From Rufibacter psychrotolerans (GTDB taxonomy: Bacteria; Bacteroidota; Bacteroidia; Cytophagales; Hymenobacteraceae): DNA of 64,000 nucleotides. Shown piece after piece: positions 45,685 to 57,671 of this stretch. Both the position numbers and the translations under genes were made by a program. Numbering within the stretch: the first letter of the stretch is position 1; each line of letters starts with the position of its first letter. The stretch spans positions 434,001 through 498,000 of the forward strand of contig NZ_JAFFJV010000001.1 of NCBI RefSeq assembly GCF_016924645.1. The letters run 5' to 3'. Below the pieces are notes generated by a model. It saw nothing but the letters and a program-made list of their open reading frames with translations, was not told where the DNA came from and ran no database searches.

Positions 45685-47232
45685 CTATTTCAACCGGCCG
45701 GCCTTGCGGCGCATGATCTCCTGCACGGGCACGTTCTCAATCTTGCTCTCCAGCCAGGAGATAATGTCCAGGTACAGGAAGGGCCGCCGCTCGTAGGGAT
45801 TCTCTGAGATGGCCATCAGACGTTCCTTCAGGTCTTTGAACGCCTCCCTCACCTGATTTGGGGCGATATTTCCCACATTGCGCAGAAAACGGAAGATCTC
45901 TACCTGCATCTGCTGCTGGTTGTCCATCTTGCCCAGGAAGTGGTACACCGTCCTGATCTGGTAATCCAGGGTGTCATCGTCGTAGCCGGCTTCGTAGTGC
46001 GCAATCAGGTTCAGGATGCGGGCGAAACACTGCAGGTCCTCGCGCAGGCTGGTGTTGCGGTGGTGGATGACCTTGTTGAGGTACTCAATGGCTTTCTTGA
46101 AGTTGCCGCTGCCAAAGTAGAGGCTGGCAATCTTGTAGTAGAACACCAGCATGCGGTGCGGGTCTAGCTGCGCCTGAAACCCCTCCAGGTTCTTGAGCAC
46201 CCCCGGAATCACCTGCAACCCCTCGGTGAACTTGCCCTCCAGAAAGTACGCGTTGATCTTGTTGGTATAGATGTAAAGGAAAAGCAGCGTGTCAATGTTG
46301 GGGTTAGAGCGGCGCTTGGGATCATCGGCAAACTCTTCCAGCTGGCGCAGCACCACTACAAACTTAGAGTGGTAGAGCAGGTTGTAGAGCGCGTTGAGCA
46401 GGTTGTGCATGCCCTTGATGTAGAGCACCGGCCGGCGCTCCTTCATGTGCGGATACGCATCAAACAGGTCCACCCACTTCTGGGCGAAGCGGTAGCAGGC
46501 TTTTAGGTCCTGGGTCATGAGGTGGTACCACACGTGCGCCTGGTAGTAGTACAGCTTCTCATAAAAGCCGGCGGTGCGCAGGTCTATTTGGGGCACGTTT
46601 TCCTGAAAAAAGGCCGAAATCGCCTCATGGTCCTGTTGGTTCCTGGCCAGGCCCACCTTAAGGTAATGCCCGTACAGCCGCAGGGCCACGTTGGAGAACT
46701 GGTGCATCCGGAAGAGGTGAGACGCCACCTGGGTGGCTTCCTGGCTCAGGTCCTCGGCCCGGCCGCTCAGGCTGCGCGTGATGTACTGGCTTTCAATCAG
46801 CTTCTCAAAGTCAATGGCCGTGAGGGCAATGTGCGGCAGCTCGTACTCCAGGGCCGTGCTCTTCACCTTGTCCAGCAGCTTGAGGCTTTGCTGGTAAAAG
46901 CCCTTGTTGTAGAGCACCCGGGCGTAGTCCAGCTGCTCGTGCAGCTGGATGTCCAGGTTCTGCGGGGCGTGGTACGTGCGCAGGCTGGAGAGCAGGTGCT
47001 TGTACAGGTTGTTCTTGAGGTTGGCTAGTTGCGCCTTCTTAATGCTGGGCACCTGCTTTAAGATCTTCTCCTCGTTCAGGGTTTCCTGCTGGTCCAGGGC
47101 GTCAAACAACTGCAGAAACTTCAAATCCTCACTGGAGCCGCTCTTGTTGGTGAACAGCCGGAAGTGCCGTTTCTCTGAGGGGGTGAGGGCTTTGATTAAT
47201 TGAAAAACAGGATCAATATTTTGGTTGGGCAT
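45685..47232 (-). CDS. Hypothetical helical-repeat (TPR-like) protein
   Basis: 515 residues, all-helical in appearance, no signal peptide or membrane helix. It starts MPNQNIDPVFQLIKALTPSE, KRHFRLFTNKSGSS, a pattern shared by long hypothetical proteins of Bacteroidota. The middle has TPR-like stretches (YARVLYNKGFYQQSLKLLDKV; FYYKIASLYFGSGNFKKAIE, followed by YLNKV). Probably a cytosolic protein-interaction scaffold. Not recognised beyond that. It is divergent from the leuA operon. Confidence 0.75.
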   Translation of the reverse strand: MPNQNIDPVFQLIKALTPSEKRHFRLFTNKSGSSEDLKFLQLFDALDQQETLNEEKILKQVPSIKKAQLANLKNNLYKHLLSSLRTYHAPQNLDIQLHEQLDYARVLYNKGFYQQSLKLLDKVKSTALEYELPHIALTAIDFEKLIESQYITRSLSGRAEDLSQEATQVASHLFRMHQFSNVALRLYGHYLKVGLARNQQDHEAISAFFQENVPQIDLRTAGFYEKLYYYQAHVWYHLMTQDLKACYRFAQKWVDLFDAYPHMKERRPVLYIKGMHNLLNALYNLLYHSKFVVVLRQLEEFADDPKRRSNPNIDTLLFLYIYTNKINAYFLEGKFTEGLQVIPGVLKNLEGFQAQLDPHRMLVFYYKIASLYFGSGNFKKAIEYLNKVIHHRNTSLREDLQCFARILNLIAHYEAGYDDDTLDYQIRTVYHFLGKMDNQQQMQVEIFRFLRNVGNIAPNQVREAFKDLKERLMAISENPYERRPFLYLDIISWLESKIENVPVQEIMRRKAGRLK

Positions 47233-50034: not shown

Positions 50035-50631
50035 ATGGAAAAGTTTGAAGTGCTTCAATCCACAGCGGTTCCGTTGCCGATTGAGAATATAGATACCGAC
50101 CAGATTATCCCGGCCCGCTTTTTAAAGGCCACCTCGCGCGAAGGCTTCGGGGAGAATTTATTCAGAGACTGGCGCTTTGACAATGCTGGTCAGCCCAAAG
50201 CGGATTTTGTCATGAATACCGGCCGCTATAGCGGAAAAATTCTAGTGGCAGGCAAAAACTTCGGGTGCGGTAGTAGCCGTGAGCACGCTGCCTGGGCCAT
50301 TTATGATGCCGGTTTCAAGGTGGTCATCTCCAGCTTCTTCGCTGATATCTTCAAAGGCAATGCGCTGAACAATGGCCTGTTACCGCTGCAGGTGAGCGAT
50401 GAGGTGCTGGCAAGATTGTTGGCCCAGATTGAGCAAGACCCGCAGACCACGTTGGTAGTGAACCTGGTGAACCAGGAACTGGAAGTGCCGGTGTGGGAAG
50501 AAAAAATCTCTTTTGAGATTGATGCCTACAAAAAAGAGTGCCTCATCAATGGCTATGATGACATTGATTTTTTAGTGAACCAGAAAGAAGCGATAGAACA
50601 ATACGAAAGCAACAGACCATGGGCGTATTAA
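50035..50631 (+). CDS. leuD: 3-Isopropylmalate dehydratase small subunit
   Basis: 198 residues, the swivel domain of the isomerase: [19 protein letters not shown] (14-32), [20 protein letters not shown] and [20 protein letters not shown]. It completes the active site with LeuC. The start is 4 nt after leuC; the end overlaps leuB by 13 nt. Confidence 0.97.
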
Positions 50632-51737
50632 CCAAAAGAATAGCCGTTTTACCCGGCGACGGAATCGGGCCGGAAGTTTGTGCCGAGGCCCTGAAAGTCT
50701 TGGAGGCGGTGTCTGAGCGTTTCGGGCACCAGTTTGAGCTAGACGTGCAACTCATGGGTGCCTGTGCCATTGACGCCACCGGCGACCCGCTTCCGGAGTC
50801 TACGCTGCAAGCTTGCTTTGAGGCCGATGCCATTTTGTTAGGCGCCATCGGGGACCCGAAATATGACAACAACCCCGCTGCCAAAGTACGCCCGGAGCAA
50901 GGGCTGTTGCGCCTGAGAAAATCCTTAGGCTTGTTCGCCAATATCCGTCCGGTAACCGCCTATGACGTGCTATTAGAGCATTCGCCCTTAAAAGCAGACC
51001 GCATTCAAGGGGCTGACATGCTGATTTACCGCGAGCTGACTGGCGGTATCTACTTTGGGGAGAAAGGCCGTACCGCCGATGGAGCGTATGACCACTGCAC
51101 TTATACCCGCGAGGAAATTGTGCGCATTGCGCACCTGGCCTTCCAATCAGCTACCACGCGCCGCAACAAACTGACCTTGGTAGACAAAGCCAACGTGCTG
51201 GAAACCTCTCGCCTGTGGCGCGAAGTAGTGCAGCAGATTTCCCCGGAATATCCGAGCGTAGCGGTTGATTACCTGTTTGTGGACAACGCTGCCATGCAGA
51301 TGATTCTGAACCCCAAGCAGTTTGACGTGATTCTCACCGAGAACATGTTCGGGGATATTATCTCAGACGAAGCTTCGGTGATTGCCGGTTCTTTGGGCTT
51401 GCTGCCTTCGGCCTCAGTAGGAGAGACCGCCGCGTTGTTTGAACCTATCCACGGCTCCTTCCCGCAGGGCAAAGGCTTAGGCATTGCCAACCCTATTGCT
51501 ACCATTTTGTCAGTGGCTATGATGTTGGAGCACTTCGGAATGTATGATGAGGCGACTTTGGTGAAAGAAGGTGTGGATTATGCCCTCCGAAGAAAGGTAT
51601 TGACCCCTGAACTGAACAGCGATAATCCTTATACCACTGAGCAAGTGGGCTGCTTCATCGCTGACTACGTGCAGGAGGGTGGCGAGTGTTTCCGGCACCT
51701 GAAGAACCTGGAATTGGGCTTGAGCACCATCATCTAA
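50619..51737 (+). CDS. leuB: 3-Isopropylmalate dehydrogenase
   Basis: 372 residues. [20 protein letters not shown] (8-27), the Arg-rich substrate segment [47 protein letters not shown] and [20 protein letters not shown] (Mg-binding Asp residues), then [20 protein letters not shown]. It oxidises and decarboxylates 3-isopropylmalate to 4-methyl-2-oxopentanoate with NAD. Last gene of the leucine block; a palindromic repeat follows the stop within a few bases. Confidence 0.97.
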
Positions 51738-51740
51738 AAT

Positions 51741-51782
51741 TGCGTTTTCGACCTGTTTTTCTAAAAACAAGCCGAAAACAGG
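51741..51782. repeat. Family A palindromic repeat
   Basis: TGCGTTTTCGACCTGTTTTT, CT, AAAAACAAGCCGAAAACAGG. 4 bp past the leuB stop. Confidence 0.7.
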
Positions 51783-51830
51783 AAATAGAAGTTTTTGAGT
51801 CCTGAGACTCGCGCTAGTCAAGGAATAAAG

Positions 51831-51872
51831 GTGCGTTTTTAGCCTGTTTTTCAGAAAACAGACCAAAAACAG
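51831..51872. repeat. Family A palindromic repeat
   Basis: GTGCGTTTTTAGCCTGTTTT, TC, AGAAAACAGACCAAAAACAG. Confidence 0.7.
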
Positions 51873-51889
51873 AAATAAAAAGAATACAG

Positions 51890-51949
51890 ATGCGACACCG
51901 GTCGGTCATTTACATTATTAGCATTTGTCCTCTGCCGCAAGGTGGGTAG
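51890..51949 (+). CDS. Candidate ilv attenuator leader peptide (19 aa)
   Basis: The frame encodes MRHRSVIYIISICPLPQGG: Val6, then Ile at 7, 9, 10 and 12 (all ATT) and Leu15, so 6 of 19 residues are branched-chain amino acids. It ends 23 bp before a strong intrinsic terminator that precedes ilvD. The codon run overlaps the base of a possible first hairpin, so a ribosome stalled for lack of isoleucyl-tRNA would change folding downstream. This is the classic amino-acid attenuator layout. There is no clear Shine-Dalgarno (A-rich region upstream), as is common in this phylum. Chance occurrence of a short frame is possible; the position and codon content argue against it. Confidence 0.6.
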   Translation: MRHRSVIYIISICPLPQGG

Positions 51950-52010
51950 GATAGGTCCCATACAACCTTTGGGAGCCTTTCTACCCGCCCGGTAGAAAGG
52001 CTCTTTTTTT
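51926..52010 (+). promoter_or_regulatory. Predicted transcription attenuator of ilvDBN
   Basis: Three exclusive pairings can be drawn. Protector: TGTCCT (51926-51931) with AGGATA (51948-51953). Antiterminator: AGGTCCCA (51953-51960) with TGGGAGCCT (51970-51978, one bulged base), with support from GGGTAG (51944-51949) and CTACCC (51981-51986). Terminator: 51973-52003. The antiterminator uses the left arm of the terminator, so only one can form. Confidence 0.6.
51973..52010 (+). terminator. Intrinsic terminator upstream of ilvD (attenuator)
   Basis: 13-bp perfect stem GAGCCTTTCTACC/GGTAGAAAGGCTC (51973-51985 and 51991-52003), 5-nt loop, seven T. It ends 35 bp before the ilvD start and well after leuB, so it acts on ilvD entry. 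Confidence 0.88.
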
Positions 52011-52045
52011 ACAGCAACATCAAGAATCACAAAGAATTACCAGCC

Positions 52046-53767
52046 ATGGCGTTAAATAAATACAGCGGCATTTACACCAAAGACGACAGCCTTCCGGCCT
52101 CTCAGGCCATGCTGATAGGGTCAGGGGTGAAAGAAGAAGACCTGCGCAAACCGTTTGTGGGCATCTGCTCTACCGGCTTTGAAGGAAACACCTGCAATAT
52201 GCACTTGAACGGCCTCGCCGATGCCGTGAAAATAGGTGTGCAGGCCAACGGCATGGTGGGCCTTCGGTTCAACACCATTGGCGTGAGCGACGGGATTACG
52301 AACGGCAACGCAGGCATGCGCTACTCTTTGGTGAGTAGAGAACTGATTGCTGATTCTATTGAGGCTATGGCCGGTGCGCATTACTATGATGCGGTGGCCA
52401 CGGTGGTAGGCTGTGATAAAAACATGCCGGGTGCCTTGATTGCTATGGCGCGCCTCAACCGCCCGTCGGTGATGATTTACGGCGGTACCATCAAAGGCGG
52501 TGAGTACAAAGGCCAGAAACTGAACATTGTGTCTTGCTTTGAGGCCTACGGCAAGAAACTGAACGGCACCATCTCAGACGAAGATTACCGCGGCATCATC
52601 CGGAACGCCTGCCCGGGACCAGGTGCCTGCGGCGGAATGTACACCGCCAACACCATGGCGGCCGCTATTGAGACCTTGGGCATGAGCTTGCCGTTCTCTT
52701 CCTCTTCTACGGCCGTGAGCGCAGAGAAAAACCAGGAAGCGCTTGACACCGGAGCCTACATCTTGAACCTGCTGGAGAAAGACATCAAGCCCAGAGACAT
52801 CTTAACCCGTGAGGCCTTTGAGAATGCTTTGGTCATGATTACGGTGCTGGGTGGTTCTACCAACGCGGTGTTGCATCTCATTGCCATTGCCCATGCCGCG
52901 GGCGTGCATTTGACCATGGAAGATTTCCAGGACGTGAGCAACCGCGTGCCGGTTCTCGCCGACCTGAAACCGAGCGGCAAGTACCTCATGGAAGACCTTT
53001 CCGCGTTGGGCGGCGTACCGGCGGTACAGAAAACGTTGCTGGAAGCCGGATTGCTGAACGGTGATTTACTGACCGTCACAGGCAAAACCCTCGCGGAGAA
53101 CTTAGAAAATGTGAAACCGCTGGGCGCGGAACAGGACTTGTTGAGACCGCTTTCCAACCCCATTAAATCAGACGGCCACATTCAGATTCTATACGGCAAC
53201 CTGGCTTCTAAAGGAGCCGTGGCGAAGATTTCGGGGAAAGAAGGTTTGCGGTTTGAGGGCCCGGCCATTGTGTTCAACTCTGAAGAAGAACTGAATGAGG
53301 GCATCGCCGCCGGAAAGATTCTACCGGGTCAGGTCGTCGTCATTCGGTACGTGGGGCCCAAAGGCGGTCCGGGTATGCCCGAAATGCTGAAACCCACCTC
53401 AGCCATTATGGGTGCTGGTTTAGGCGATAAAGTAGCCCTCATCACCGACGGTCGTTTCTCGGGTGGTACCCACGGCTTTGTGATTGGCCACGTGAGCCCC
53501 GAAGCCTATGACGGCGGCACCATTGCCTTGGTAGAAGACGGCGACTGGATTGTGCTGGACGCCGCCACCAACACCATTGACGTGCAGCTGAACGAGGCTG
53601 AACTGGCCATCAGGAAAAGTAATTGGAGAAGACCAGCCCCTAACGTGCAGAGCGGGGTGCTATTGAAATACATTAGAACGGTAAGTGATGCCAGCCACGG
53701 TTGTATCACCGATTTACAAGACGAAGCCTATGTTAACGCAAGAGAAACAAGCCCCAGCCTTGCCTGA
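52046..53767 (+). CDS. ilvD: Dihydroxy-acid dehydratase
   Basis: 573 residues. Cluster Cys in [17 protein letters not shown] (about 47-63), [20 protein letters not shown] and [20 protein letters not shown]. The C-terminal swivel part has [20 protein letters not shown] and [20 protein letters not shown]. It dehydrates dihydroxy-isovalerate and dihydroxy-methylvalerate to the 2-oxo acids of valine and isoleucine. First structural gene behind the attenuator. Its last 38 nt overlap ilvB. Confidence 0.97.
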
Positions 53768-56121: not shown

Positions 56122-56163
56122 AGCTGTTTTTGGCCTGATTTTCAGAAAGTAGGCAAAAAACAG
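56122..56163. repeat. Family A palindromic repeat
   Basis: AGCTGTTTTTGGCCTGATTT, then TCAGAAAGTAGGCAAAAAAC followed by AG. Confidence 0.62.
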
Positions 56164-56216: not shown

Positions 56217-56343
56217 GGCGCGAGACTTCAGTCTCGTGACAAAAGATGAAGCGAACGCTCCAGACTCGCCGGGAACCACAAGGAGATAATAGGGAGTCCG
56301 GAGACTCCAACCACATATCGGCACGAGTCTGGAGACTCGCGCC
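56217..56343. repeat. Family B GAGTCT-type palindromes in inverted array
   Basis: GGCGCGAGACTTCAGTCTCG at 56217-56236 and its inverted relative ending CTGGAGACTCGCGCC at 56343, with GGAGTC-CGGA-GACTCC (56294-56309) between them. Related copies: 57607-57628 and near 51797-51814. Confidence 0.62.
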
Positions 56344-57550: not shown

Positions 57551-57592
57551 GATGCGTTTTCGGCCTGTTTTCTCCAAGACAGGCCGAAAACA
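57551..57592. repeat. Family A palindromic repeat (strong)
   Basis: 13-bp perfect arms GTTTTCGGCCTGT (57556-57568) and ACAGGCCGAAAAC (57579-57591), 10-nt loop. Confidence 0.8.
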
Positions 57593-57640: not shown

Positions 57641-57671
57641 ACCTGTTTCCCAGAAAACAGCCCCAAAACGC
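57641..57671. repeat. Family A repeat, right half
   Basis: ACCTGTTTCCCAGAAAACAG, then CCCCAAAACGC. Confidence 0.5.

What the first reader, a model, noticed from the sequence alone, without database searches (positions are those of the whole stretch)
51890..52010. Ile-rich leader peptide and attenuator before ilvDBN
A 19-codon frame with four ATT Ile codons plus Val and Leu is followed by a candidate protector hairpin, an antiterminator and a 13-bp terminator with U7, all before ilvD. Ribosome-stalling attenuation is best known from Proteobacteria; a clear ilv example in Cytophagales would be a useful addition. It also fits the lack of an allosteric domain in LeuA.
Basis: partly seen in the sequence, partly recalled or inferred. 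Interest (0 to 1): 0.78.

Follow-up and report, generated by a model that had tools for sequence, protein, structure and literature searches.

The report
Isoleucine-sensing attenuator inside leu-ilv operon
Just before the isoleucine and valine genes of a bacterium related to Hymenobacter lie a tiny test gene and an RNA switch that should stop transcription when branched-chain amino acids are plentiful; it looks like a real, conserved example of a classic mechanism, and some relatives carry two such switches in a row.

Summary
A 19-codon ORF (51890-51949, MRHRSVIYIISICPLPQGG, four ATT) is followed by a 13-bp perfect terminator with U7 (51972-52010) and a stable, mutually exclusive antiterminator (51941-51989) whose 5' arm contains the ORF's stop codon. 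The same module precedes ilvD in 10 of 14 same-genus loci. Related modules precede ilvD, or ilvE when it comes first, in 85 of 114 other family loci and 49 of 80 Bacteroidota-wide loci; antisense controls gave 0, 0 and 3. Best explanation: ribosome-mediated attenuation sensing charged Ile/Val (perhaps Leu) tRNA. Compensatory changes give only weak support. The kind is known (leader-peptide attenuation was already suggested for a Flavobacterium), so this is a new member. The freshest by-product: 23 relatives carry two leader-terminator cassettes in series, 14-67 nt apart; among transcription attenuators my searches found that only for Salmonella mgtCBR, which reads two different signals. Nothing here tests expression.

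The parts
50619..51737 (+). leuB, gene directly upstream; transcription probably enters the attenuator from here
   Evidence: TIGR00169 over cut-off; ORF list
51744..51870 (.). two dispersed ~36-nt palindromic repeats (51744-51779, 51835-51870) between leuB and the leader; not part of the switch
51890..51949 (+). leader ORF MRHRSVIYIISICPLPQGG*, the sensor
   Evidence: conserved in 10 of 14 genus loci
51905..51925 (+). candidate control codons Val-Ile-Tyr-Ile-Ile-Ser-Ile (GTC ATT TAC ATT ATT AGC ATT)
   Evidence: their role is inference from position
51923..51956 (+). candidate protector hairpin (1:2), -13.3 kcal/mol
   Evidence: 87.1% of cells paired in genus alignment
51941..51989 (+). antiterminator (2:3), -29.0 kcal/mol; 5' arm holds the leader stop codon 51947-51949
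51972..52010 (+). intrinsic terminator (3:4) with U7 at 52004-52010, -23.5 kcal/mol
52046..53767 (+). ilvD, first gene controlled
   Evidence: TIGR00110 and PF00920
53685..55463 (+). ilvB, downstream gene (start codon as listed, uncertain)
   Evidence: TIGR00118
55485..56093 (+). ilvN, downstream gene
   Evidence: TIGR00119, PF10369
56472..57515 (+). ilvC, possibly in the same transcript (378-nt gap after ilvN)
   Evidence: TIGR00465
57673..59001 (+). ilvA, possibly in the same transcript (start uncertain)
   Evidence: TIGR02079

Best explanation
The region is a ribosome-mediated transcription attenuator that senses charged branched-chain tRNA. A ribosome translates the 19-codon leader behind RNA polymerase. 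If charged Ile (also Val, perhaps Leu) tRNA is short, it stalls at codons 6-12 and leaves 51941-51960 free to pair with 51970-51989; the terminator cannot form and ilvDBN (probably ilvCA too) is transcribed. If supply is ample, the ribosome runs to the stop codon, which lies inside the antiterminator's 5' arm, covers that arm, and the terminator at 51972-52010 forms. If the leader is not translated, the hairpin 51923-51956 can do the same job. In this genus the switch is internal, between leuB and ilvD, so it would uncouple ilv from leu expression. Shown here: ORF, three competing stems, geometry, conservation. Inferred: translation, stalling, termination, and that leu and ilv share a transcript.
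For: Anatomy. Conservation in 10 of 14 genus loci, with one in-frame length change of the leader. Same architecture with different sequence elsewhere: 10 of 14, 85 of 114, 49 of 80, against antisense 0, 0, 3 and 0 of 110 inside ilvD. In 167 leaders the leader end pairs with the terminator 5' arm as well as or better than at least 95% of shuffles in 129, and the stop codon lies in or next to the antiterminator arm in 145; stop-to-terminator gap median 23 nt, IQR 22-27, within the 45 nt allowed. ATT share of Ile codons 35 of 38 in genus leaders against 165 of 359 in their ilvD genes (could also reflect RNA constraints). When ilvE (TIGR01122 in the one tested; others by eye) comes first, the leader precedes ilvE. 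The genus also has a Phe/Tyr-rich leader plus terminator before pheA (15 of 15) and a His-rich ORF before hisG (16 of 16).
Against: No expression, ribosome-profiling or termination data. Covariation: within the genus no measure exceeds shuffles, and six of 19 antiterminator pairs fail in 5-8 of 10 rows; in 19 family sequences the score and paired cells exceed all shuffles, but the number of pairs with changes on both sides (178 of 500 shuffles as high) and of pair types (497 of 500) do not for the antiterminator (terminator 20 and 182 of 500). Four genus genomes with leuB next to ilvD lack the leader (G140, G143, G135, G144), so it is dispensable. 29 of 114 and 31 of 80 other loci show none by my criterion, and the phylum antisense control gave 3 of 80. 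No promoter was mapped, so 'internal' rests on short leuB-leader gaps.
Confidence: 0.85

Rival explanations
1. An ordinary intercistronic terminator that ends the leuACDB transcript, with a short ORF in front of it by chance or as a leftover; ilvD has its own promoter.
For: The terminator is strong and sits between two sets of pathway genes; terminator-like GAGCC..GGCTC hairpins occur elsewhere in these genomes.
Against: The ILV-rich frame, the antiterminator and the stop-codon placement recur in relatives, the module precedes ilvE when that gene comes first, and only 35 nt lie between the U-run and ilvD.
Confidence: 0.07
2. A leader switched by a trans-acting factor or directly by tRNA or a metabolite (T-box, riboswitch, RNA-binding protein), the ORF being incidental.
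For: Competing antiterminator and terminator stems are shared by such systems; a PyrR-site match lies across the stems but far below threshold (17.8 against 54 bits, E 4.1).
Against: No Rfam family reaches its gathering score in the window or in 14 related loci. Conservation sits in the coding frame and in the stems, with no separate aptamer-like domain visible.
Confidence: 0.05
3. The leader acts mainly through translation (re-initiation or coupling into ilvD) rather than premature termination.
For: A paper proposes that leader ORFs raise translation by re-initiation, with a Bacteroidetes distance peak at 11-14 bp (PMC4833913, passages).
Against: Leader stop and ilvD start are 96 nt apart with a terminator and U7 between them.
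Confidence: 0.03

Closest known systems
Proteobacterial ilv attenuators (E. coli ilvGMEDA leader ilvL, ilvBN leader ivbL; recalled)
   Same: ILV-rich leader ORF, competing antiterminator and terminator, control of ilv genes
   Different: No Rfam match; 19 codons; stop codon inside the antiterminator arm; located between leuB and ilvD in this genus
Leader-peptide attenuation candidates in Flavobacterium psychrophilum (PMC9723704, section 19 read)
   Same: Same phylum, amino-acid biosynthesis operons, leader peptide plus structured 5' region; that section names 5' elements upstream of pheA and hisG, and this genus has leader ORFs at both
Bacteroid-trp RNA (RF01692)
   Same: Cis-regulatory candidate of Bacteroidetes listed in PMC2864571 (passage)
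   Different: No match in the own genome
Salmonella mgtCBR tandem attenuators (PMC3641672, passages)
   Same: Two leader ORFs and two attenuators in series, as in 23 relatives here
   Different: There the signals are ATP and proline; here both leaders are ILV-rich and serve branched-chain operons; the window itself has only one
Corynebacterium ilvBNC leader (PMC10272879, PMC11857589; start of abstracts in listings only)
   Same: uORF or attenuator control of ilv genes outside Proteobacteria
   Different: Other phylum, ilvB rather than ilvD or ilvE first

Membership tests
Ribosome-mediated amino-acid attenuator (ilv leader type) | Short ORF rich in codons for the amino acids made by the operon | tested here: met
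   4 Ile, 1 Val, 1 Leu of 19 codons; ILV-rich in all 10 genus leaders
Ribosome-mediated amino-acid attenuator (ilv leader type) | Intrinsic terminator between leader ORF and first controlled gene | tested here: met
Ribosome-mediated amino-acid attenuator (ilv leader type) | Antiterminator mutually exclusive with the terminator and placed so that a ribosome at the leader stop would mask it | tested here: met
   51941-51989 overlaps the terminator 5' arm and the stop codon; the masking itself is inference
Ribosome-mediated amino-acid attenuator (ilv leader type) | Protector (1:2) hairpin | tested here: inconclusive
   Stable in the window, 87.1% cells paired in the genus; single-sequence folds differ in some genus members and in relatives outside it (-7.5 to -16.4 kcal/mol in nine Hymenobacter-type leaders)
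Ribosome-mediated amino-acid attenuator (ilv leader type) | Conservation of leader and stems in relatives | tested here: met
   10 of 14, 85 of 114, 49 of 80 loci; antisense 0, 0, 3
Ribosome-mediated amino-acid attenuator (ilv leader type) | Compensatory changes in competing stems | tested here: inconclusive
   None above shuffles in the genus; in 19 family sequences score and paired cells exceed 500 of 500 shuffles, counts of pairs and pair types do not
Ribosome-mediated amino-acid attenuator (ilv leader type) | Read-through depends on charged Ile/Val/Leu tRNA and on leader translation | not testable with these tools
   needs RNA-seq or reporters
T-box or other Rfam leader family | Match to the family model | tested here: not met
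   0 matches at gathering score in the window and in 14 loci; best sub-threshold matches are weak
Bacteroid-trp RF01692 | Match to the model | tested here: not met
   0 in own genome; control rings in Bacteroides ihuae

The most novel reading that the evidence does not exclude
The window holds one half of a widespread, Rfam-absent family of branched-chain attenuators in Bacteroidota whose larger form is tandem: an upstream cassette (in one genus a leader ending ..RGVEMVC or alike, antiterminator in its last codons) and, usually about 30 nt later, a downstream cassette (leader ending ..PLPPG or alike, antiterminator across the stop), both ILV-sensing and in series on one transcript, which should multiply termination and sharpen the response. 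The window's genus kept only the downstream type and uses it as an internal switch between leu and ilv genes.
Probability: 0.5. Interest if true: 0.66.

Novelty: new member of a known kind. Interest (0 to 1): 0.5.

Why it matters
It gives a clean, testable branched-chain attenuator in a phylum that starts translation mostly without Shine-Dalgarno sites (recalled), and shows that such modules are widespread in the Bacteroidota loci sampled although no Rfam model reached threshold on those scanned. The internal position raises a testable question: whether cells uncouple ilv from leu expression mid-operon. Loss in four genus members beside relatives that keep it (IlvD 97% identical for one) is a natural experiment. 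Serial ILV cassettes in relatives would be a simple natural case of one kind of signal read twice in one transcript.

Tried and rejected
LeuA allostery link: rejected, since the attenuator lies downstream of leuA and no ILV-rich ORF with a terminator was found in 700 nt before leuA in 14 genus loci; one (L352) has an ILV-rich ORF without terminator. Rfam identity: none at threshold; sub-threshold matches at 51730-52060 are mostly miRNA families, plus PyrR and suhB on the + strand and Phe_leader and cyano-S1 on the - strand, all weak. A second leader upstream in the window: none; the only other hit of a looser scan of the whole window is on the minus strand overlapping the palindromes. Further copies in genus genomes: weaker model hits (E 5e-4 to 0.1); the ten inspected are hairpins, most of them terminator-like, without an ILV-rich leader. 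Promoter search with one spacing of a recalled Bacteroidetes consensus: 6 matches against 4.1 expected, none between leuB and ilvD. Leaders displaced elsewhere in the four leaderless genus genomes: not found in the 8-kb stretches fetched. An earlier tally dropped true terminators through a faulty T-run filter and is superseded. In-frame ILV enrichment over the leader set (0.49 against 0.26 and 0.07 in the other frames) is not used as evidence because the leaders were selected on it. Left out before counting: L006 from the tandem set (its first cassette looks spurious) and G053 from the family set (only a 35%-identical paralogue). Kept and counted as negative: L130, with only 144 nt upstream. 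Family loci with a leader within 600 nt were not extended, so tandems there may be undercounted.

Full report
WHAT IS THERE. Between leuB (stop at 51737) and ilvD (ATG 52046) lies a 19-codon frame, 51890-51949, MRHRSVIYIISICPLPQGG, with four ATT, one GTC and one CTG. It is followed by a 13-nt perfect inverted repeat (51973-51985 / 51991-52003) and U7 at 52004-52010. Three alternative stems fold better than shuffled controls: protector 51923-51956 (-13.3 kcal/mol, z -2.9), antiterminator 51941-51989 (-29.0, z -5.2), terminator 51972-52005 (-23.5, z -6.6). Folded whole, the leader prefers a form that contains the antiterminator (-48.9, z -4.0), so termination needs something to mask 51941-51960. 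The leader stop codon (51947-51949) lies in that arm. The genes around it are leuA, leuC, leuD, leuB and ilvD, ilvB, ilvN, ilvC, ilvA by curated families.

GENUS. IlvD was searched in 204 family genomes; 129 gave a hit and 128 loci were examined (one paralogue-only genome left out). Of 14 genus loci, 10 carry the leader. Peptides vary in the middle but stay ILV-rich (for example ..SVICFIVITPLPQGG..SVISIIVIIPLPQGG..LVIISIIISPLPPGS), with one in-frame length change, while the end PLP(Q/P)G(G/S), which encodes the protector and antiterminator arms, is nearly fixed. A covariance model of these 10 found strong hits (E <= 2e-28) in 10 of 16 genus genomes, each before ilvD; the next hits were E 5e-4 or weaker, and the ten of them inspected are hairpins without an ILV-rich leader, most of them terminator-like. 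Four genomes with leuB beside ilvD lack it (G140, G143, G135, G144) and two genomes gave no IlvD hit. In G140, G143 and G144 the leader's place holds a GC-rich CCCCTCTC..GGGG stretch that looks like a repeat.

FAMILY AND PHYLUM. A combined criterion (ATG ORF of 10-40 codons with at least 6 ILV in 10 residues, and a terminator with a T-run whose 5' arm starts no more than 45 nt after the stop) was applied to the upstream sequence held, 144-2500 nt per locus. Positive: genus 10 of 14, other family loci 85 of 114, Bacteroidota-wide set 49 of 80 (the set was chosen by IlvD similarity, includes one Ignavibacteriae record and some odd labels, and two of its loci duplicate family loci). Antisense controls: 0 of 14, 0 of 114, 3 of 80; inside ilvD: 0 of 110. 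An earlier 600-nt version gave 10, 32 and 24 positives, antisense 0, 0 and 4, and 0 or 1 per set in five rounds of dinucleotide shuffles. Where ilvE is first the leader precedes ilvE (the one ORF tested is TIGR01122, the others are named by eye). Over 167 leaders, pairing of the leader end with the terminator 5' arm matches or beats at least 95% of shuffles in 129, the stop codon is in or next to that arm in 145, and the stop-to-terminator gap is 22-27 nt (IQR). ATT is 35 of 38 Ile codons in genus leaders against 165 of 359 in ilvD; 240 of 328 against 1108 of 2041 in the phylum set. Slow decoding or RNA constraints could both explain it.

COVARIATION. In the genus alignment none of the three stems exceeds column shuffles: paired cells are 76.2% for the antiterminator, 89.2% for the terminator, 87.1% for the protector; six of 19 antiterminator pairs and two of 14 terminator pairs fail in half or more of the rows. 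The window has the most stable antiterminator of the ten (-30.7 against -17.9 to -25.4). In 19 family leaders the covariation score exceeds all 500 shuffles for antiterminator (0.174 against 0.138) and terminator (0.162 against 0.133), as does the share of paired cells; but the two measures least inflated by relatedness do not stand out for the antiterminator (pairs changed on both sides: 178 of 500 shuffles as high; pair types: 497 of 500) and only partly for the terminator (20 and 182 of 500). This is weak support.

HOW IT MOST LIKELY WORKS. Stalling at Val6 to Ile12 would leave the arm from 51941 free (A-site at 51923 plus about 12-15 nt of footprint; distances recalled), so the antiterminator forms and ilv is transcribed. 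A ribosome at the stop codon would cover the arm, so the terminator forms. Without translation the protector could give the same result. Stalling at Leu15 is predicted to be ambiguous because the ribosome would already cover part of the arm; so Ile and Val are the likelier signals in this species. In six of the nine loci where the leuB end was found, leuB stop and leader ATG are 58-69 nt apart (152, 262 and 431 in the others), and much of the short gaps is palindromic, so transcription probably enters from leuB. The switch would then decide mid-operon whether ilv follows leu. This is inference; no start site is mapped.

THE LEUA ARGUMENT. But the attenuator is downstream of leuA, and no leader with terminator was found in 700 nt before leuA in 14 genus loci. 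The argument is not supported.

TANDEM CASSETTES. In 24 loci the scan found two cassettes; one (L006) looks spurious and was dropped, leaving 23: 17 in the family, 13 of them among the 27 loci of one genus (g5), and 6 elsewhere (Ignavibacteriae L011, Chryseobacterium L038 and L044, Lutibacter L051, Tenacibaculum L057, Cyclobacteriaceae L071). The antiterminator test passes in 20 of 23 upstream and 21 of 23 downstream cassettes. The first terminator ends 14-67 nt before the second ATG, 27-33 nt in 14 of 23, which leaves little room for a separate promoter. Upstream leaders in g5 end ..RGVEMVC or alike, downstream ones ..PLPPG or alike. Both are ILV-rich (upstream I 0.26, V 0.15, L 0.07; downstream I 0.32, V 0.10, L 0.14). 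Searches for tandem leader attenuators ([quoted passage not shown] I saw no report of serial branched-chain leaders there, in a library that lacks most subscription papers.

WHAT IS KNOWN. PMC9723704 (section 19 read) reports strong clues for leader-peptide attenuation upstream of amino-acid operons in Flavobacterium psychrophilum and conserved structured elements at pheA and hisG. The window's genus has a Phe/Tyr-rich leader plus terminator before pheA in 15 of 15 and a His-rich ORF before hisG in 16 of 16 loci; for hisG no terminator above threshold lay between ORF and gene. PMC2864571 lists Bacteroid-trp (passages). PMC2965389 (passages) said in 2010 that, the atypical ermC leader apart, no leader-peptide system was known to it outside Proteobacteria and Actinobacteria before its own Firmicutes case. 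PMC7366714 (passages) notes short ORFs in long 5' UTRs of Bacteroides thetaiotaomicron reminiscent of leader peptides. Vitreschak et al. 2004 is not held; from memory its abstract includes Bacteroidetes/Chlorobi. Searches combining Bacteroidetes or Bacteroidota with leader or attenuation terms listed no paper that by title or opening of its abstract describes this element.

VERDICT. Real, conserved, and best explained as ribosome-mediated attenuation; a new member of a known kind, with an unusual internal position and, in relatives, an interesting tandem form.

Noticed in passing
51744-51779, 51835-51870, 56133-56152, 57565-57584, 57641-57660: Dispersed palindromes of the type GTTTT..GCCTGTTTTTCAGAAAACAG..; 21 copies with up to 3 mismatches in the own genome (0 for the reversed control pattern), and 4 matches to a 20-nt core in the window, 0 expected (the copy at 51744 was found as a repeat). 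REP-like intergenic repeats of unknown origin.
   Followed up: partly
56294-56338: Second short palindrome family GAGTCTGGAGACTC between ilvN and ilvC (2 in window with up to 1 mismatch, 0.01 expected); similar stretches are visible upstream of ilvD in several genus members.
   Followed up: no
45685-47232 (-): 515-aa protein divergent from leuA, with only a weak TPR match in Pfam; a 514-aa protein with a similar end lies upstream of the ilv leader in Lutibacter (L051; no Pfam match) and a similar start was seen near L066. Possibly a conserved neighbour of branched-chain operons; similarity judged by eye.
   Followed up: partly
L330 and L343 (own genome), L317-L347: His-rich leader ORF (..GVHCHHFHHSS or alike) before hisG in 16 of 16 and Phe/Tyr-rich leader (MIQRNSYFYGFYFFGPQPGLNR or alike) with terminator before pheA in 15 of 15 genus loci.
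   Followed up: partly
L113/L247, L117/L250: A roughly 230-aa methyltransferase (Methyltransf_25 in the one tested) sits between the leader and ilvD in some Hymenobacter-type genomes.
   Followed up: partly
L084 (G140): Genome with IlvD 97% identical to the window's lacks the leader, with repeat-like sequence in its place.
   Followed up: partly
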